Source of the DNA: Alphaproteobacteria bacterium
GTDB lineage: Bacteria; Pseudomonadota; Alphaproteobacteria; CAAHEQ01; UBA3637
Assembly (NCBI GenBank): GCA_017960645.1
Contig: JAGCYU010000024.1
Span: forward strand, 1 to 33,490
DNA length: 33,490 nucleotides
Direction: 5' to 3'
Positions 15,611-25,235 of the stretch are shown here, piece by piece (the stretch's first letter is position 1; each line of letters starts with the position of its first letter). The notes below the pieces were generated by a model that was not told the DNA's origin, did no database searches, and worked only from the letters and a program-made list of their open reading frames with translations. The translations under genes and the position numbers were made by a program.

Positions 15611-16558
15611 TTATTTTATAACAGCATAATCATTCATATTATCTTGGTACATTTGCCAAAACATCTCTGGATGAAGATGACCTTGTACAGGAATTATATG
15701 CAATCTAGATTTTGGTAATGCCTTATATAGTTCATAAGCTTGATAAGGCGGGCAACTTGGATCCCATCTATTCTGGTAAATCTCAGTAGGAATATCTTTG
15801 ATTTTAGTAATATTCTTTAAAATTTGATTTTCCTTCAAAAAAGAATGATTCAGTTGATAATGCATATAGATTCGAAATACATGAATTTCTTGAGCCGTAT
15901 ATTCCCTATTTTTGAATTCATAAGAAAGAGCCGCAGAGCTGGTTATATAATCTAACGTCTCATAATACTTCATTGCCTTTTGCTGATCGGCATATTTTTC
16001 AGAAAAAAGCAACTTACTAAAATATTTATCTGGATCAACTTTACCTGTAACTTTCTTGATTTCACCCAACATATCTGGATAAAATAAACGTGTTACAGGA
16101 GTTAAATATTCTCCATCTTTTTTGCGTCCCAAAAAAATTGCATTGACAATGATTCTTTTGGCTTTTTCTGGATAAGTTTCAGCAAACACCAAAGCACACG
16201 TTGACCCCCAAGAAGTCCCAGAAACAATGACTTTTGTCTTAATTTTTAAAAAATCTAGCAATCTATTGGCATCATCCACCGTTTTTTGAATTGTATTATT
16301 TTTAAAAGCATCCTTGCATATGGACAAACCACAACCTCTTTGATCAAAGATAACAACACGATATTTTTTCAAGTTATATGAATAAGCTTGAGATACTTTT
16401 CCACAACCACCAGGGCCCGCATGAAAACAAATAACTGGCTCTCCGTTTGGATTACCAACTTCTTGAAAGAATATCTTATGTCCATCTTGTTCAGGCAAAT
16501 AACCGGAATTATAGGCTTTCACAAAACGATTACGTAAATTATACCAAAAATGTTCCAT
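15611..16558 (-). CDS. Proline iminopeptidase-like alpha/beta hydrolase
   Basis: 315 residues. It follows the Pip pattern (S33 serine peptidases that remove N-terminal proline): the oxyanion motif HAGPGG (46-51, usually HGGPGG), FDQRGCGLS (71-79), the nucleophile elbow GTSWGS with Ser116, RWDPSCPP with Asp266, and GHLHPE with His294. No signal peptide, so cytoplasmic. The Ala for Gly in HGGPGG and Cys in DQRGCG are small departures. A strong minus-strand promoter precedes it; the ribosome-binding site is weak (AAGAAAAA). It is a lone gene converging on the broken transporter. Another substrate, such as an ester, cannot be excluded. Confidence 0.85.
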   Translation of the reverse strand: MEHFWYNLRNRFVKAYNSGYLPEQDGHKIFFQEVGNPNGEPVICFHAGPGGCGKVSQAYSYNLKKYRVVIFDQRGCGLSICKDAFKNNTIQKTVDDANRLLDFLKIKTKVIVSGTSWGSTCALVFAETYPEKAKRIIVNAIFLGRKKDGEYLTPVTRLFYPDMLGEIKKVTGKVDPDKYFSKLLFSEKYADQQKAMKYYETLDYITSSAALSYEFKNREYTAQEIHVFRIYMHYQLNHSFLKENQILKNITKIKDIPTEIYQNRWDPSCPPYQAYELYKALPKSRLHIIPVQGHLHPEMFWQMYQDNMNDYAVIK

Positions 16559-16778: not shown

Positions 16779-18678
16779 ATGATACGTAAAGTTTGGCTCG
16801 GCAATACCCCCGCTGCCGAAAAAATAGTCATTTAAAATCAAATGGTTATTATGAATCTGGCCGCAGCATGATCGAGATGCTGGGCGTGCTGGCTGTTGTG
16901 GGCGTTCTAAGCATCGTTGGGATTGCCGGCTTTCGTTCTGCTATGGATAAACATCGTGCCAGCAAGATTTTGAATGAGGCCCACCGGCGCGCCGTGATTA
17001 TTTCGGGACAAAAAGGCTTTCATCAAAGCGCCCCTTCGTTGGAAGAATTTATAAACAATACGTTTGCGGGCGGTACATTTGATACAGCAGTGGTCACTGA
17101 TCCTGCTGTCAGCCAATTCGGACTGAAAGTATCCAAAATGCCCGAAAAAATATGCCAAAATATTCTTTCTATGATTTCCGAAAAAACAGTTCTTAGGCGT
17201 TTAGCTTCAGAAGAAAATATTGCCGAACTGATTGAAGCTTGCACAGAACCAGACGGAACGTATTTGATGGTTTATAATGATGATTTAGGCACTGAAGATA
17301 AAATACCACCAGCAAAGGTATGTCGAGAACATTCGGATTGTCGTACCACCTGTGGCACGTGCAATATTGCAGAAAACGCAGAAGAAGGTATTTGTGTTGG
17401 GGAATGTGACAGCGAATGTATTCCAGGAGAAGATGCCTGTGGCGAAAACGAATGTATCATCTGCGATGAAGAAAGCAAAACCTGCAAAGATAGATGTATC
17501 CCTCTTGATTATTTGGAATCTACTGGTACACAATGACGCAGATTTCATTCCCTCACTAAACACTAAAATTGAAGCTACTTTTAGAATTGTTACCGCTGGA
17601 ACTGATGATTGTATTATGGGCGTTATTGATCCAAATCTGGCAATAGGTATTGGTGGCCACAACATTTGTGGAGCCTTCAAAAATGGCGTAGGAAGTAATT
17701 TTTCGATAACGAATACTGATGAAGACTTTTATCATACATTACATACCGTTAATGTAGAAAACGGCAGGAGTACTGTTGATGGTGTAGGATATAGTTGGGC
17801 CAAAATAACCTCTTACTCTACAAATAAAAGTATTTACCTGTTTAAGGCTAACAATTTTGGTCCATCCAAGATTAAAGGATACGCATTTCAAATTTGGAAT
17901 CAAGAAAAATTGTCACGAGATTTCACGCCTGTACACGTTCCTTGGCATCCAAAAGGCACACAAAATTGTATGTTTGATAGAGTAAGCAAAAAACTTTTCT
18001 GTAATTTAGGTGGGGGTGTTGATTTCAATATTCATGGTGCCTACCATCCTGAAACAGAGGAATGCAAATCTAATATAGATTGCTTTGTTGAAGATGAATG
18101 TACGGTTTGTGATCCTGAATCAAAGATGTGTAAAGACGCCTGCAAAAAAATAGAATATCTGAGAAGCACAGGCAATCAATATATTGATACAAATTTTATG
18201 CCTAACAATAATACCTCAATTGAAACAAACGCAGAATGGACGTATTTACAAAATACAGAATTATTCGGTGTTAGAAATTCAACATCTTCAATGTACGAAT
18301 TATTAGCATGGAATAATTATCTTGTTTATCAATATGCTTCAAACGAACCTACGGTAAGTTTTGCTCCATACAATAACGTTCAACATATATATAGAACAGA
18401 GAAAAATAAGTTATATGTAGATAACATATTTGATTTTCTCTGTTTCATCTGCAAATTTCACCGACACTTGGCCTCTTACACTTTTCGCTTTAAACAACAA
18501 TGGGAATATACAGCGTTTTTCTCAAGCCAAGATGCATTATTTTAAAATTTGGGATAATGGCGCTCTTGTTCGCGATTTGGTACCAGTTTTAGATCCGGAT
18601 GATATCCCTGCTATGTATGATCAAGTGGAAAAAAGACTTTACTATAATCTAGGTTCTGGGCAATTCATTACACCGTGA
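16779..18678 (+). pseudogene. Prepilin-like / Cys-rich / twin lectin-like surface protein, frameshifted
   Basis: In order: a prepilin-type signal G-RSMIEMLGVLAVVGVLSIVG (cut after Gly, Glu at +5) with a pilin-like domain; a Cys-rich stretch (about 17320-17510); the DYLESTGTQ module start; a beta-rich domain; a second Cys-rich linker (18060-18150); a second YLRSTGNQYIDTNF module; and an end LVPVLDP...MYDQV...YYNLGSGQFITP. The last module matches the end of the gene at 31816-33490. The frame is broken near 17530 (a Tyr-Ile pair expected between TGTQ and DADF is missing, consistent with a 5-base loss) and near 18432 (net +1). The best start, ATG 16779 after AAGGGA, is out of frame with the pilin frame, which otherwise needs TTG 16793. 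Three breaks make a pseudogene likely. The module is probably a concanavalin-like fold. Confidence 0.75.
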
Positions 18679-18790: not shown

Positions 18791-18819
18791 TTGTAATAGT
18801 ATATTATCTGGGGTATAAT
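18791..18819 (+). promoter_or_regulatory. Promoter of the RiPP operon
   Basis: TTGTAA (18791-18796), 17-base spacer, TATAAT (18814-18819). Start of transcription near 18826 gives a leader of only about 23 bases holding the strong AAAGGAGG site. Bases 18679-18790 show nothing else recognisable. Confidence 0.75.
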
Positions 18820-18848
18820 AGGGCCGTAGTCCAAGAAAGGAGGGTTCC

Positions 18849-18986
18849 ATGGAAAAGGAAGAAAATGTGAAACAGCCAGAGCAACCAAAAGAACAACCTA
18901 AAACCATTGATACATGGAAAATGAAGGCTATTGATGCTTTATCTCATGGTTGTACAATTAACTGTGATGGTCCTGATGCTGCATAG
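18849..18986 (+). CDS. Candidate RiPP precursor peptide, 45 residues
   Basis: Begins MEKEENVKQPEQPKEQ and ends with a probable core SHGCTINCDGPDAA before TAG. The N-terminal ~18 residues are charged and rich in Glu/Lys/Pro/Gln, then a short helix-prone stretch (DTWKMKAIDAL) leads to a Gly/Cys/Asp-rich tail: a leader-core layout. AAAGGAGG seven bases or so upstream is the strongest ribosome-binding site in this region, as expected for a substrate made in excess. It is directly followed by two radical SAM/SPASM genes. Cys35 and Cys39 (C-X3-C) are obvious candidates for thioether bonds, Asp/Asn for other carbon cross-links; Trp23 is a further candidate. No known precursor family is recognised. 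The gene is too short for usual ORF cut-offs. Confidence 0.8.
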   Translation: MEKEENVKQPEQPKEQPKTIDTWKMKAIDALSHGCTINCDGPDAA

Positions 18987-18995
18987 GATATTTGT

Positions 18996-20042
18996 TTGAC
19001 CAATTTTATAAAAGATGAATTTGCAGAGTACTATGAAAGGCCTGCAGAGGTTCAGGTTGACGTGACGAATCGGTGCAATTTTGATTGCGCATATTGTTAT
19101 AATAAAGGGAATTCGCACCGAAATAAGCCTGAGCTTTCTGACGGTCGTTTTTTGTTGTTGGTGGATAAAATAGTAAAAGAACTTAATCCTGTAACAATTA
19201 TTTTTACAGGAGGGGAGCCTTTGCTACGAAAAACTTTGCTATTAAAATCTATACAAAAAGTCCATGATGCAGGTATTGGCACCGCTTTAAATACAAACGG
19301 ATATTTTTTGACAGAATCTGTCATTCAAGAACTAAAAGAGGCAGGCCTTGATACAATTCAAACCAATCTTGATGCTTGCAATGCGGCTGTGTATCAAAAA
19401 TTAAGAGGTGGCGTCAGTTCATACAGTAGACAGATAGAAACCCTTAAAAATTTAAAGCGCCTATTTGGTGAAAAGTGTGTCACGGTTATTCAAGTAGTCA
19501 CCAAAGAAAATTATAAATATATAAAAGTTCTTGCCAATTTTATTCAGGAACTGGGGCTAACTAAGTTGAAACTTTTAGATTTTGTCCCTGTCAAAAAAGA
19601 AGACCAGGCATTAATGCTCACTAAAACCGAATGGTTGGAAGTTTTAAATCAAGTTAAGGAAAGCAGAGAAGAATTAAAGGTTCTTGTTAGGTTGTGTCAT
19701 TCTTTTATATTCATGTCCGACGAATACAAAAATCTCAAATTCCCTTTTTGTATGGCTGCACGTTTTGCATTATTTATTACCGCAGATGGATCTTTGTTCC
19801 CATGTAACCACTTAAAACGAGATGAGTTTTATTGTGGAAATGCTTTTGAGAATAATTTATTAAAGCTCTGGCAAGATAACGAGATGCTAAACAAAATTCG
19901 TTATTATGACTACAGCGATAGAAAATGCATTAATTGCATAAAGTATAAACAATGTGCTGGTGGGTGCAAGGCTTTAGCAAATATCCTAAAAGGCAATGCA
20001 TTTGCCGGCGATCCATCGTGTGATATGTTGCAATATTTATAG
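18996..20042 (+). CDS. Radical SAM/SPASM protein 1 (peptide maturase candidate)
   Basis: 348 residues. The radical SAM cluster motif is CNFDCAYC (Cys27, 31, 34), followed by FTGGEP (70-75) which binds the SAM amino group. The C-terminal SPASM region has Cys252, 270, 280, 311, 314, 320, 324 and 342, enough for two auxiliary 4Fe-4S clusters. Such enzymes form radical cross-links on peptides (for example thioethers or carbon-carbon bonds). Start: TTG 18996, four codons after the precursor TAG in the same frame, with AGGA at 18985-18988; there is no better in-frame ATG before the catalytic Cys. The N-terminal ~18 residues are too short for a full RiPP recognition domain, so leader binding may use another surface or the partner enzyme. 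Confidence 0.92.
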   Translation: MTNFIKDEFAEYYERPAEVQVDVTNRCNFDCAYCYNKGNSHRNKPELSDGRFLLLVDKIVKELNPVTIIFTGGEPLLRKTLLLKSIQKVHDAGIGTALNTNGYFLTESVIQELKEAGLDTIQTNLDACNAAVYQKLRGGVSSYSRQIETLKNLKRLFGEKCVTVIQVVTKENYKYIKVLANFIQELGLTKLKLLDFVPVKKEDQALMLTKTEWLEVLNQVKESREELKVLVRLCHSFIFMSDEYKNLKFPFCMAARFALFITADGSLFPCNHLKRDEFYCGNAFENNLLKLWQDNEMLNKIRYYDYSDRKCINCIKYKQCAGGCKALANILKGNAFAGDPSCDMLQYL

Positions 20043-20053
20043 GAAATGTAGCG

Positions 20054-21058
20054 ATGACTGAAGAAGAGTTGGGTCTTCATTTATTAGAAATTGAAATCAC
20101 AAACAAATGCAATTTAAATTGTTTGCATTGCTACGTGGATCGAACAAAACCAATGTTTATGCAACCCCAAGAAGTGTATAAATTAATTGATTTTGCCATA
20201 AAACACAAAATAACAAGACTCATATTCACTGGAGGAGAACCCCTTTTATGCCCTGATTTATTTCAATATGCAAACTATGCCCGCGATAAAGGTATTAACT
20301 CTTTATTTTTAATGACAAATGGTTTGTTATTAAATGAAGCAAATATACAAAAATGCAAGGTTTTTGATGAAATACAATTAAGTTTGGATGAACTGCCAAA
20401 CTCTAAAGCATCCATCAGAAATGATTATTTAAAAATATTAGAAAAAAAATTTGAGCTTTTAAGGAAAAATAATATTCTCTTTTTGCTTTTTGTGACCCTC
20501 AACAAACTCAATTATGAGCTTATTCCTGACTTTGTCCAATATGCGAGAAGTCAAGATGCATATATTTCCTTTAATTGTTTGGTTCCCTTATACCCGGAAT
20601 TACATAAATTAACTTTGAATCAAAAACAATTATATCAAGTGCTCAAAGAAATAAATACATTTAGTAAATCTAATAACCATGTTTCCTTCAATAATCATTT
20701 TAAGGTTCTTGTAGATCCAGAAGAACACGAAGTTTTGGAACAATATCCCAAAAATCAAATTGTTGGAGGATGTTTGGCAGGAATTGCATCCGCATATATA
20801 ACCGTAAAAGGAGACGTTTATGCTTGTCCATTTTTGAAAATCCCTGCGGGAAACGTATTTAAGAATCCATTAGATGATATTTGGTTAAACAGTAATCTAT
20901 TGAATTCTTTACGCAAACGACACAAATTCAAAAAACCCTGTGGCAATTGTACTTTTTTAAGTATGTGTGGCGGTTGCCGCGCCTTAAGTTATATAAAAAC
21001 AGGCGATTATTTAGGAGCAGATTCCATGTGTATAAAAGGAGAAATATATGAAAATTAG
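20054..21058 (+). CDS. Radical SAM/SPASM protein 2 (peptide maturase candidate)
   Basis: 334 residues. CNLNCLHC (Cys19, 23, 26) is the radical SAM site, FTGGEP is at 58-63, and the SPASM-type tail has Cys240, 258, 296, 299, 305, 308 and 326. It is clearly a separate enzyme from its neighbour: they share motifs but little else. It starts 11 bases after that gene and overlaps the acetyltransferase gene by 11 bases, so all are cotranslated. Two different SPASM enzymes beside one precursor suggest two successive modifications, or a heteromeric maturase. PqqE-like and sactipeptide-type enzymes have this layout; the actual chemistry is not predictable from the sequence. Confidence 0.92.
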   Translation: MTEEELGLHLLEIEITNKCNLNCLHCYVDRTKPMFMQPQEVYKLIDFAIKHKITRLIFTGGEPLLCPDLFQYANYARDKGINSLFLMTNGLLLNEANIQKCKVFDEIQLSLDELPNSKASIRNDYLKILEKKFELLRKNNILFLLFVTLNKLNYELIPDFVQYARSQDAYISFNCLVPLYPELHKLTLNQKQLYQVLKEINTFSKSNNHVSFNNHFKVLVDPEEHEVLEQYPKNQIVGGCLAGIASAYITVKGDVYACPFLKIPAGNVFKNPLDDIWLNSNLLNSLRKRHKFKKPCGNCTFLSMCGGCRALSYIKTGDYLGADSMCIKGEIYEN

Positions 21059-21530
21059 ATTAGCAACACCAGAAGATGCTGAAGGCATCTGTAATGTTTC
21101 TGTCATAACTTGGAAAAAAACATATGCAGGCTTGATTCCGGATGAAATATTAGCTCAAAAAACTGTAACAAAGCAGAAAACAGATCAATGGAAAACACGC
21201 ATTATGAATAATGTAGATACATCCCTTTTTGTTTTGGAAAATGACGGTCAAATTTTGGGTTTTCTATGGGGAGGCAAAGCAAGGGATTCTGTTTTATCTG
21301 AGTATAAAGAAATCTATGCATTTTATATTTTACCAGAAATGCAAGGCCATGGCTATGGAAGAAAACTCTTTGAATATTTTAGTCAAAAGTACAACACCAC
21401 TAAAATTTATGCATATGTCTTAAAAAATAACCCTTCTGAGGGATTCTATAAAAAATTAGGATTTAGCTGTCAAACACAATATGCAAAAGCAGAAGGAGTT
21501 TTTATGGAAAACGCTTTTCTACATTCATAA
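21048..21530 (+). CDS. GNAT acetyltransferase of the RiPP operon
   Basis: 160 residues. It starts MKIRLATPEDAEGICNV, has the acetyl-CoA loop MQGHGYGRKLFEYF (Q/R-X-X-G-X-G/A type) near residue 98, and SEGFYKKLGF near 130. Its ATG (21048) overlaps the end of radical SAM gene 2, with AAAGGAG just upstream, giving tight translational coupling. In a RiPP setting an acetyltransferase commonly caps the product N-terminus or a Lys, or inactivates the product for self-protection; either is inference here. It is not closely similar to the GNAT at 432-905. Confidence 0.88.
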   Translation: MKIRLATPEDAEGICNVSVITWKKTYAGLIPDEILAQKTVTKQKTDQWKTRIMNNVDTSLFVLENDGQILGFLWGGKARDSVLSEYKEIYAFYILPEMQGHGYGRKLFEYFSQKYNTTKIYAYVLKNNPSEGFYKKLGFSCQTQYAKAEGVFMENAFLHS

Positions 21531-21541
21531 TGGGGTAAATA

Positions 21542-22675
21542 ATGATACAGGAAGTTATTGATATTACACAAAAGCTTATGAAGCTTAAAACGGTTGAAAA
21601 TCGTTACATCGAGATTATGAAGGCTGTTAATTTTTTGCAAAATTATGCCAATCAAAACGGATTATATTTTGAAACTATCGAAAATGAAAATCATCCTATT
21701 GTCATCATATCAAATGGTCAAAAAAGAAAATTTGATGTTATGTCCTTGGGCCACATAGATGTGGTTCCTGCGGAAAATAAAGATCAATATCTTCCTAAAA
21801 TAGATGGAAATTTATTAAGAGGCCGAGGTTCTTTTGATATGAAAACAGGAGTGGCCATTGGATTAGAGTTACTTCGTTGGGTGAAAAAGATGGGATTGGA
21901 TATAAATATGGGAATTGTCCTCACTTCGGATGAAGAAGTAATTGGCGCTCGTAGTATGGATGTCGTTGAAAAAAAGGGGATACATTCAAAAATTATTTTG
22001 GATAGTGATGGCCTTACAGGTATCTCAGCGATCGTTGAAAAAACAAAAAATGCCATTTTTGGAAAATTAGTTTCAAAAGGTAAAAAAGTCAGTTCAAGAA
22101 TCCCGTGGATGGGAACAAGTGCTATAGATAATCTGATGCTATCATTAATCGGAATCAGAAAACATTTCCCCTACTATGATGGTAGGCATTTGCCCAAAAG
22201 TAAACGGGAAGGGGGCGATTTTTGGGAAAATCATTTGACAATTGGCATCATAGAAGGAGGGAGTTCTAGGTATCGCGTTAGCGCAGAGGCATCTGCAGAA
22301 CTTGATTTCAGAGTAATCAATGGGTTAACCGGAAAAGATATAAAAAAAATTATACAGCCAGAGCTCGTCGGAAATACAAGATATCAAGAAATATATGAAT
22401 TTGGCTCAATTAATGAAGATAGAAATGCGCCAATAATGGCTCTATATGCAAGCATTATAGAAAGAATCACTGGGAAAAAAGTAAAATTTATACGAGACGG
22501 ACGCGGATCTAATTCTTGTATGATGAAAAATAAAAAAGGAACAACTGTTATCATGCACAGTTATTCAGGAGGTGGGCAACATACCCCTGATGAATTTGTC
22601 AATTTAGATACAGTCAAACAGCAATGTCTAATTCAAAAAGAATTTATTAAAAAGATTACAGAACTAGAGACTTAA
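21542..22675 (+). CDS. M20-family metallopeptidase of the RiPP operon
   Basis: 377 residues, ArgE/DapE/M20 fold. Metal and catalytic motifs: SLGHIDVVP (His71, catalytic Asp73), RGRGSFDMKTG (bridging Asp99), SDEEV (Glu131 general base, Glu132 ligand), an ILDSDG ligand region (~154), and HTPDE near 347 (last His ligand). The dimerisation domain lies between about 180 and 290. Members remove N-terminal residues or acyl groups from small peptides or amino acids in the cytoplasm. It starts 11 bases after the GNAT stop. Plausible roles are trimming the processed leader remnant, releasing the acyl group, or degrading product for self-protection. No signal peptide. It is a good candidate for a dedicated RiPP protease, although M20 enzymes are unusual in that role. 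Confidence 0.85.
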   Translation: MIQEVIDITQKLMKLKTVENRYIEIMKAVNFLQNYANQNGLYFETIENENHPIVIISNGQKRKFDVMSLGHIDVVPAENKDQYLPKIDGNLLRGRGSFDMKTGVAIGLELLRWVKKMGLDINMGIVLTSDEEVIGARSMDVVEKKGIHSKIILDSDGLTGISAIVEKTKNAIFGKLVSKGKKVSSRIPWMGTSAIDNLMLSLIGIRKHFPYYDGRHLPKSKREGGDFWENHLTIGIIEGGSSRYRVSAEASAELDFRVINGLTGKDIKKIIQPELVGNTRYQEIYEFGSINEDRNAPIMALYASIIERITGKKVKFIRDGRGSNSCMMKNKKGTTVIMHSYSGGGQHTPDEFVNLDTVKQQCLIQKEFIKKITELET

Positions 22676-22781
22676 CTGGCTGGTAATTATTTATTCCAAT
22701 CAGCTTTAAAAAGGTGCATTTTTCTTTTCTTAAAATAAAAAGACACTATTACACATCAAAAAATCAATGATTTCTTTGTTT

Positions 22782-22807
22782 ATAATAACGTTTTGTTATT
22801 ATTTTTT
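22782..22807 (+). terminator. Terminator of the RiPP operon
   Basis: ATAATAAC (22782-22789), loop GTTTT, GTTATTAT (22795-22802), then TTTTT. An AT-only 8-bp stem with one G-C pair but a clear T tail. It marks the operon end about 110 bases after the peptidase stop; a weaker imperfect hairpin is at 22675-22705. Confidence 0.6.
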
Positions 22808-22835
22808 AACGGTTTGATCATTTCTTAAAATTCGC

Positions 22836-22887: not shown

Positions 22888-24777
22888 ATGTTTTCAACAA
22901 TTAAATCAAAAATTCTGGTTCTGATTTTTGCCTTATTATGTGTACTCACCTGTATTTTGACAGGCGTATCTTTATACACCTTTCATCACAGCAAAGAATT
23001 GATTATTGCAGGAAATAATTCTTCTATCATGGCCTTTGAAGGCCAACTGAATAAAGAAATGGCCGAAATGGAAAAAGAAGCATTGGATTTGGCAGTCATG
23101 GGAGAAATATATTATCAAAACGGAAAGCATCAAGAAACAGGAGAATTTTTTGCCAAACGACTGCTTAAAAATTATCCAAATTCTATGGGAAATGGGATTT
23201 GGTTTGAACCCTATAAAATCGATAAAAATCGCAAGTCCAGCTGTATTCATGCTCTTTGGGATGAGAATGGTAAAATAGGTTTTTTACCGTCCTGTGTAAG
23301 GGGTGATTATGATTATTTCAGCCGAAATTGGTATGCCGAAATAATAAAAGACTTAAAGTCAGGCAAAAAAATATCATGGACCAGACCTTATAAAAGCAGT
23401 GAAGTTGAATTTTTGATGACAACTGTCGGTGTTGGTATCTATGACAAAAAAAAGTTAGTTGGTATTGCTATGGTGGATTGGCAAATGGATACTATTTTAA
23501 AATCTATCTTAACAATTAAACCAACCCCAAACAGCTTTGTGTTATTTGCAGACAAAACCAATGATTACATTATTGCGACAACCGAACCAGGCATTGACAC
23601 AGCAAAAGTCATGGGAAAATCACTCAAAAATTTAGCGTGGTATTCGACTGCTTTAAAAGAAGGTGTTCCCTTTGATTACCATGGCACAAAATATATTCCC
23701 TATATCAAACAATTACATAATGGTTTGTTTTTGATTATCAATGTGCCAGAGCGAGAATTGTTTTCGGCAGGACTTCATCATTTGCATGTTGTGCTAAGTG
23801 TATTGTTGATTGCCTGTGTTTTGATTATCGGGATTTTATACTTTGTATTAAAAAAGAATATCAATCAACCTCTTGAAAAACTCACCCAAACTGCCGAAGA
23901 AATCGGCAAAGGCAATTTGAATTTAGCGATTCAACTGGACCAGCCCCTGGAATTAGCACAATTAGCTGCTATCTTGAATAAAATGACCAAAGATATCAAA
24001 GAACATATCATTAACTTGGCGCGTGTATCACAGGAAAAAGAAAAGATTGAATCCGAACTAGCAATCGCACACACGATTCAAACTTCTGTTTTACCAACAG
24101 ATTTCCCAAAAAACGAAGCATTTGAATTAGTGGCATCCATGACAGCTGCCCGTGAAGTTGGTGGCGATTTCTATGACTTCTTCCCAGTGGATAAAACACA
24201 TTACGCCTTTGTGATGGCAGATGTATCTGGTAAAGGTATTACAGCCGCGCTTTATATGATGTCGGCCAAGACCATGATTAAAAATATGCTGCAAGCTGGC
24301 TATCCTTTGGCGGAAGCAGCGTCCAAAGTCAATAAAGGGCTGTGTGATAACCATGCGCGCGGGATGTTTGTAACCGCTTTCATTGGTATATTGGATATGA
24401 AAACAGGTCAGATAGAATATATCAGCGCAGGACATTGTCCGCCCCTTGTGAAAAAAGGAAAACAGTACACCTATGTGAAAGTGAATCAAAATTTGGTCTT
24501 GGGTATTACCCCAAACTATATTTATAAAACTGGTTCTTTCCAACTTAAGAAAAATAATCGATTATTCCTATATACAGACGGGGTTACAGAAGCTCAAACA
24601 AAAACCGAAAAACTTTATGGACCAGAACGATTGCAAAAAGCATTAAACCAAGGGACGGGAGATACTATATCCCGTGTACGGCATAGGATTCATCGCTTTA
24701 CAAAAGGCGCAAATCAATCTGATGACATTACGATGATGGAAGTTATATTAAAAAAGACAACTAAAAGAACTAAATAA
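22888..24777 (+). CDS. Membrane-bound SpoIIE/RsbU-type PP2C phosphatase
   Basis: 629 residues. An N-terminal membrane helix (about 8-29) is followed by a periplasmic Cache-like sensor (30-295; landmarks NGIWFEPYKID and RNWYAEI), a second helix (~300-321), a HAMP linker (NQPLEKLTQTAEEIGKGNL), a short coiled coil starting the output (ELAIAHTIQTSVLP), and a PP2C/SpoIIE domain (390-627). Metal-binding motifs are VGGDFYDFF (~425), ADVSGKG and SDDITMMEV at the end. Such proteins dephosphorylate an anti-sigma-factor antagonist in response to an external ligand. No antagonist, anti-sigma kinase or sigma factor gene is adjacent, so the partner must lie elsewhere. Start ATG 22888 is preceded by AAGGGG. 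Confidence 0.92.
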   Translation: MFSTIKSKILVLIFALLCVLTCILTGVSLYTFHHSKELIIAGNNSSIMAFEGQLNKEMAEMEKEALDLAVMGEIYYQNGKHQETGEFFAKRLLKNYPNSMGNGIWFEPYKIDKNRKSSCIHALWDENGKIGFLPSCVRGDYDYFSRNWYAEIIKDLKSGKKISWTRPYKSSEVEFLMTTVGVGIYDKKKLVGIAMVDWQMDTILKSILTIKPTPNSFVLFADKTNDYIIATTEPGIDTAKVMGKSLKNLAWYSTALKEGVPFDYHGTKYIPYIKQLHNGLFLIINVPERELFSAGLHHLHVVLSVLLIACVLIIGILYFVLKKNINQPLEKLTQTAEEIGKGNLNLAIQLDQPLELAQLAAILNKMTKDIKEHIINLARVSQEKEKIESELAIAHTIQTSVLPTDFPKNEAFELVASMTAAREVGGDFYDFFPVDKTHYAFVMADVSGKGITAALYMMSAKTMIKNMLQAGYPLAEAASKVNKGLCDNHARGMFVTAFIGILDMKTGQIEYISAGHCPPLVKKGKQYTYVKVNQNLVLGITPNYIYKTGSFQLKKNNRLFLYTDGVTEAQTKTEKLYGPERLQKALNQGTGDTISRVRHRIHRFTKGANQSDDITMMEVILKKTTKRTK

Positions 24778-24882: not shown

Positions 24883-25235
24883 ATGACACATAAGGTTTGG
24901 CTGAGCAATACCCCCGGCCCATAAATAATCGTTTGAAATCAAATTGTTATTCTAAATCCGACCGCAATATGGTAGAAATATTGGGCGTGCTGACCATCAT
25001 GGGTGTTTTAGCCATTACCGGGATCACCGGCTTTTGCTCTGCTATGGATAAACGCCACGCCAAAGAAATCATCAACAAGGTTAACAAGCGGACCTATTTA
25101 GGCTCTGCGGACTTATTGTTGAATCATAATAATACAAGCTTGAGTAATAATTTTGCTGTAACCTCACCAACGCCAGCTGCCAACCAAAAAACTACCACGA
25201 ACCAGATTGTCCAAATGGGGGAATGTATAGCGTAA
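24883..25235 (+). pseudogene. Decayed second copy of the prepilin-like gene start
   Basis: Upstream and N-terminal bases match the first copy (GGAAAAGGGAATTT before the ATG; the ATG frame reads KVWLSNTP against KVWLGNTP). As in copy 1, the ATG frame soon stops (TAA at 24922-24924) and the prepilin-like part lies in the -1 phase, reachable only from TTG 24897. The hydrophobic helix reads MVEILGVLTIMGVLAITG, but the Gly before the cleavage point is Asp (SD-RNMVEI), so prepilin peptidase should not process it. The frame ends after 112 residues without the Cys-rich or lectin-like modules. I read this as a truncated remnant. Confidence 0.7.

What the first reader, a model, noticed from the sequence alone, without database searches (positions are those of the whole stretch)
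18791..22807. Apparently undescribed RiPP operon: 45-residue precursor, two radical SAM/SPASM enzymes, GNAT and M20 peptidase
Seen: promoter TTGTAA-17-TATAAT, strong ribosome-binding site, a 45-codon gene ending in SHGCTINCDGPDAA, two radical SAM proteins with CX3CX2C and 7-8 SPASM Cys each, an overlapping GNAT gene, an M20 peptidase and a terminator. Known: SPASM enzymes beside short peptides are peptide maturases (PQQ, mycofactocin, sactipeptides, ranthipeptides). Inference: the C-X3-C core is cross-linked, then trimmed or acetylated. I match the precursor to no known class.
Basis: partly seen in the sequence, partly recalled or inferred. Interest (0 to 1): 0.92.

Follow-up and report, generated by a model that had tools for sequence, protein, structure and literature searches.

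The report
Undescribed gut-bacterial modified-peptide operon
A small gut alphaproteobacterium carries a five-gene operon that probably turns a short, strongly conserved peptide into a modified product with two radical enzymes; it fits a known kind of pathway but matches no family in the libraries searched, and its product is unknown.

Summary
In detail: a 45-codon gene, two radical SAM/SPASM enzymes, an overlapping GNAT gene and an M20 peptidase lie at 18849-22675, with a plausible promoter and a weak AT-only terminator hairpin. The decisive evidence is a second copy of the operon in a rabbit-gut MAG of another genus in the same family, with unrelated flanks. It has the same gene order and the same 11-nt overlap between rSAM2 and GNAT. 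Its 38-aa peptide shares 18 of 23 residues (DTWKMKAxxALxxGCTINxDGPD) with the window's; this block is more conserved than any enzyme (dN 0.14 against 0.27-0.63), while the N-terminus and tail differ. So the small ORF is a real gene and the operon behaves like a RiPP pathway. My best mechanism, inferred, is a Cys35 thioether to a downstream residue (Asp40 or Asn38), then trimming and acetylation. No enzyme reaches a curated NCBIfam cut-off, neither rSAM carries a leader-binding domain, and the operon has no exporter. It sits in a variable genomic site and is very rare.

The parts
18791..18819 (+). Candidate sigma-70 promoter TTGTAA-17-TATAAT
   Evidence: 10 of 12 matches, but such sites occur at chance frequency in the region; the position 5' of the ribosome-binding site makes it plausible
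18849..18986 (+). Precursor peptide gene, 45 aa; conserved block residues 21-43 DTWKMKAIDALSHGCTINCDGPD
   Evidence: Homologous 38-aa ORF at L004:1361-1477 in front of homologous rSAM genes; dN 0.14, dS 0.88 over 23 codons
18996..20042 (+). rSAM1, radical SAM/SPASM enzyme, 348 aa, no N-terminal leader-binding (RRE) extension
   Evidence: PF04055 and PF13186 over cut-off; 67% identical in the relative
20054..21058 (+). rSAM2, radical SAM/SPASM enzyme, 334 aa
   Evidence: PF04055 and PF13186 over cut-off; 59% identical in the relative
21048..21530 (+). GNAT N-acetyltransferase, 160 aa, overlapping rSAM2 by 11 nt
   Evidence: PF13508/PF00583; 45% identical, same 11-nt overlap in the relative
21542..22675 (+). 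M20 family metallopeptidase/deacylase, 377 aa, metal-ligand motifs present
   Evidence: PF01546/PF07687; motifs; partial copy in G040 and a 59% partial copy at a contig edge in G021
22782..22808 (+). Possible terminator: AT-only hairpin followed by a T run
   Evidence: -4.6 kcal/mol, z -1.8; weak

Best explanation
A RiPP-type operon. The ribosomally made 45-aa peptide is recognised through its conserved segment DTWKMKAxxAL, without a classical RRE domain. The two SPASM radical SAM enzymes then modify the conserved core GCTIN-x-DGPD. The likeliest chemistry is a thioether from Cys35, the only conserved thiol, to a nearby downstream residue (Asp40, a Cys-X4-Asp spacing, or Asn38), with the second enzyme making another change in the same core. 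The M20 metalloenzyme then trims or deacylates the peptide and the GNAT acetylates an amine of the product or an intermediate. Shown: the genes, their conserved order, selection on the peptide block, and which core residues are kept. Inferred: that the peptide is the substrate, the bond chemistry, the order of steps, the roles of GNAT and M20, and the product's function.
For: Second operon with the same gene order (A-rSAM1-rSAM2-GNAT-M20) and unrelated flanks. Peptide block 18 of 23 identical and under stronger constraint (dN 0.14) than rSAM1 0.27, rSAM2 0.35, GNAT 0.56, M20 part 0.63, with variable N-terminus and C-terminal tail. Both enzymes have intact CX3CX2C and SPASM Cys. Closest solved relatives by sequence are peptide-modifying SPASM/twitch enzymes: 6c8v PqqE and 5v1q for rSAM1, 6efn SkfB (a sactisynthase) for rSAM2. 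The conserved core has no aromatic residue, which disfavours aromatic C-C cross-links. PapB, a SPASM enzyme, joins Cys to the Asp beta-carbon and accepts Cys-Xn-Asp with n = 0-6 (PMC9413430).
Against: Only two peptide sequences were found, so conservation rests on one comparison. There is no RRE domain or PqqD-like partner, no exporter and no leader protease in the operon. The AlphaFold model of the peptide fused to rSAM1 gave low confidence for the peptide and the SPASM end, so it shows no docking. No chemistry was tested.
Confidence: 0.8

Rival explanations
1. Small-molecule pathway: the peptide is a scaffold whose conserved core is converted into a low-molecular-weight cofactor or metabolite, as in PQQ and mycofactocin. 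The M20 enzyme releases and the GNAT protects the product inside the cell.
For: No exporter or immunity gene in the operon (for the neighbours); the core is nearly invariant; rSAM1's best curated models are PqqE and other non-bacteriocin enzymes, although far below cut-off.
Against: Very rare and in a variable site, unlike most cofactor pathways; no candidate cofactor-using oxidoreductase nearby; both enzymes are far below the PqqE and mycofactocin cut-offs.
Confidence: 0.25
2. Heme-type metabolism: the two rSAMs are a NirJ1/NirJ2 or AhbC/AhbD pair and the small ORF is incidental.
For: rSAM2's top curated models are NirJ2 (149.9 bits) and AhbD (147.6 bits); a tandem rSAM pair beside an AsnC-type gene was seen in Paenibacillus.
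Against: Curated cut-offs are 500 bits for both; no siroheme decarboxylase (AsnC-like) gene beside the pair; the peptide block is the most conserved part of the operon.
Confidence: 0.03
3. Sactipeptide-like antimicrobial: Cys35 bonded to an alpha-carbon, exported by a general transporter encoded elsewhere, and used against competitors in the gut.
For: SkfB is rSAM2's best solved relative; two rSAM enzymes act in thuricin CD and ruminococcin C pathways (PMC12093266, PMC8188230); accessory, patchy distribution.
Against: Only one conserved Cys; no ABC exporter, protease or immunity gene in the operon; no RRE domain like those in SkfB and CteB (PMC8326336).
Confidence: 0.25

Closest known systems
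Ranthipeptides (PapA/PapB, freyrasin)
   Same: One or more SPASM rSAM enzymes beside a short precursor; Cys with a nearby downstream Asp, within the spacing PapB accepts (PMC9413430)
   Different: [quoted passage not shown] here one conserved Cys, a Cys-X4-Asp spacing, two rSAMs, GNAT and M20. rSAM1 scores 93.6 and rSAM2 69 bits against a PapB cut-off of 340
Sactipeptides with two rSAM enzymes (thuricin CD, ruminococcin C)
   Same: Two rSAM enzymes per pathway; Cys in the core; rSAM2 nearest to SkfB among solved structures
   Different: Single conserved Cys, no RRE extension, no exporter or immunity genes, GNAT and M20 present
PQQ (PqqA/PqqE) and mycofactocin (MftA/MftC)
   Same: Short precursor, SPASM rSAM, peptidase, no bacteriocin exporter, near-invariant core
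   Different: No PqqD/MftB partner; core lacks the Glu/Tyr or Val-Tyr residues those pathways use; scores 134 of 381 (PqqE) and 98 of 265 bits (mycofactocin) for rSAM1
NirJ1/NirJ2 and AhbC/AhbD heme enzymes
   Same: Tandem SPASM rSAM pair; rSAM2's highest curated scores
   Different: Under a third of the curated cut-offs; no siroheme decarboxylase gene; a conserved peptide gene instead

Membership tests
RiPP pathway (general) | Short ribosomal precursor gene conserved beside modifying enzymes | tested here: met
   Peptide ORF conserved with the enzymes in two genomes with unrelated flanks; 18 of 23 identity, dN/dS about 0.16
RiPP pathway (general) | Precursor is chemically modified by the enzymes | not testable with these tools
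   Needs expression and mass spectrometry
RiPP pathway (general) | Leader-binding RRE domain or partner (common, not universal) | tested here: not met
   No RRE or PqqD family hit in any operon protein; rSAM1 has 26 and rSAM2 18 residues before the first cluster Cys
SPASM radical SAM peptide maturases | CX3CX2C plus 7-Cys SPASM region | tested here: met
Curated SPASM maturase families (PqqE, MftC, PapB, SCIFF, ACGX, GeoRSP, StsB and others) | Score over the NCBIfam curated cut-off | tested here: not met
   Best are PqqE 134.4 of 381.35 for rSAM1 and NirJ2 149.9 of 500 for rSAM2
Ranthipeptide | Cys thioether to a non-alpha carbon | not testable with these tools
   Cys35 and Asp40 are conserved in both peptides, which permits but does not show it
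Sactipeptide | Cys thioether to an alpha carbon | not testable with these tools
   One conserved Cys only
NirJ/Ahb heme pathway | NirJ2/AhbD curated score and siroheme decarboxylase neighbour | tested here: not met
   149.9 and 147.6 against 500 bits; no such gene among the neighbours
Prokaryotic viperin (defence) | Score over the NCBIfam viperin cut-off | tested here: not met
   84.1 of 180 bits for rSAM1; only generic pVip matches in PADLOC

The most novel reading that the evidence does not exclude
A new RiPP class: an RRE-independent, two-rSAM pathway that builds an unprecedented structure on the near-invariant core GCTIN-x-DGPD, possibly a small intracellular cofactor released by the M20 enzyme and handled by the GNAT.
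Probability: 0.2. Interest if true: 0.75.

Novelty: new variant of a known kind. Interest (0 to 1): 0.55.

Why it matters
Peptide-modifying radical SAM pathways are a main source of new enzyme chemistry. This one gives a compact, testable unit (one peptide, two enzymes without leader-binding domains, an acetyltransferase and a peptidase) from reduced-genome gut alphaproteobacteria, where few such pathways are described to my knowledge. The conserved core has a single conserved thiol and no aromatic residues, so it narrows the chemistry to be looked for.

Tried and rejected
Genome-contig scan with rSAM1 alone found nothing; with the two-sequence alignment it found only the rabbit-gut copy. That scan used two exact peptide patterns, so distant relatives are not excluded. 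Viral-contig scans gave only distant generic rSAMs or chance pattern hits. About 385 alphaproteobacterial and 398 Pseudomonadota genomes had no rSAM1 relative at E 1e-45 or 1e-40; other phyla could not be reached. A plasmid hit to the peptide (Paroceanicella, E 0.3) is chance: no rSAM gene nearby. Plasmid rSAM hits are PqqE, mycofactocin, ACGX or heme-type enzymes. Peptide search of the order and class gave no further copy above noise. AlphaFold of the peptide-rSAM1 read-through gave mean pLDDT 66.6, with the peptide at about 40-50, so no docking claim. Literature searches for the core strings gave no relevant paper and none for an rSAM/SPASM RiPP with GNAT. The 'CX3C cross-link' was rejected as the conserved feature because Cys39 is Gly in the relative.

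Full report
Observation. The 45-aa ORF (18849-18986), rSAM1 (18996-20042, TTG start), rSAM2 (20054-21058), GNAT (21048-21530) and M20 (21542-22675) lie head to tail on the + strand. Pfam confirms the four enzyme families, and both rSAMs match Radical_SAM and SPASM over the gathering score. Cys counts in the SPASM regions are 8 and 7. The promoter is plausible by position, but such matches are at chance frequency. The terminator is an AT-only hairpin of modest stability.

Relative. A search of relatives found one genome (G040, rabbit-gut MAG, contig CANPXT010000009.1) with a 67% identical rSAM1. Upstream of it lies a GTG-started 38-aa ORF behind a GGAGG site, MTEIVNDTWKMKATEALKNGCTINGDGPDFVEFPDMVQ; downstream lie rSAM2 (59%), GNAT (45%, with the same 11-nt overlap) and the start of M20 (38%), where the contig ends. 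tblastx shows no collinear match outside the operon. A third genus (G021) has a 59% identical M20 cut by a contig start, so the operon may continue in unassembled sequence.

Selection on the peptide. Over the 23 aligned codons 18 residues are identical; dN is 0.14 and dS 0.88. The enzymes have dN 0.27 (rSAM1), 0.35 (rSAM2), 0.56 (GNAT) and 0.63 (M20 part) (Nei-Gojobori, two sequences, so rough). Shuffling one peptide 5000 times never gave more than 9 identities. The N-terminus and the C-terminal tail differ. This is what a recognised segment plus a core looks like. The conserved core is G34 C35 T36 I37 N38 - D40 G41 P42 D43; position 39 is Cys in the window and Gly in the relative.

Family membership. 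No operon enzyme reaches a curated NCBIfam cut-off. rSAM1 peaks with PqqE (134.4 of 381.35), rSAM2 with NirJ2 (149.9 of 500) and AhbD (147.6 of 500), PapB 93.6 and 69 of 340. Closest solved structures are PqqE (6c8v) and 5v1q for rSAM1, and SkfB (6efn) for rSAM2; from my own knowledge 5v1q is SuiB, the streptide enzyme. Neither rSAM has an N-terminal RRE and no RRE partner is encoded in the operon. [quoted passage not shown] rSAM1 has an extra conserved Cys280 that could matter here, but the model is too weak in that region to place it.

Mechanism. With one conserved thiol and no aromatic residue in the core, a Cys35 thioether is the simplest outcome. PapB forms Cys-Asp thioethers with Xn of 0 to 6 (PMC9413430), so Cys35-Asp40 (X4) is within precedent. 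Two-enzyme sactipeptide pathways exist. Roles for GNAT (acetylation) and M20 (trimming or deacylation) are inferred from family only; the closest solved M20 is 2rb7, unnamed in function, and the closest solved GNAT is 1wk4, also of unnamed function. Lack of an exporter leaves a cofactor-like or a cytoplasmic product open.

Genomic setting. In the sister genome G002 (87% identity in the SpoIIE-type neighbour) the stretch between the alpha/beta hydrolase (window 15611-16558) and the SpoIIE-type gene (window 22888-24777) holds other genes (an acetyltransferase, SIR2, a nitroreductase-like gene and others) and no operon. Together with rarity this indicates a laterally mobile accessory locus in a variable site.

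Limits. Two peptide sequences; one scan pattern set over GTDB; no biochemistry. Confidence that this is a RiPP-type operon is about 0.8; for the Cys35 thioether specifically about 0.4.

Noticed in passing
window 16793-18678: Three overlapping ORFs in different frames form a pilin-like leader (RSMIEMLGVLAVVGV) followed by a Cys-rich protein; it looks like one frameshifted or decaying gene. None matched Pfam.
   Followed up: no
window 24897-25235: Short ORF whose N-terminus resembles the pilin-like start at 16793 (MARQYP.../MAEQYP..., NMVEILGVLTIMGV); the operon and the SpoIIE-type gene lie between the two copies.
   Followed up: no
L141:5923-7116 (own genome, contig C12): The genome's only other SPASM radical SAM protein (397 aa), 25% identical to rSAM1, beside a 178-aa protein and with no obvious peptide gene.
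   Followed up: partly
L008:10541-10827 (G040 contig end): The relative's M20 gene departs from the family after MSLG for the last ~80 nt of the contig; contig-end chimera or an interruption.
   Followed up: partly
L173:8619-12716 (G002): Different accessory gene set (acetyltransferase, ASCH-like, SIR2, nitroreductase-like, Hsp70-like) in the same site where the window has the operon.
   Followed up: partly
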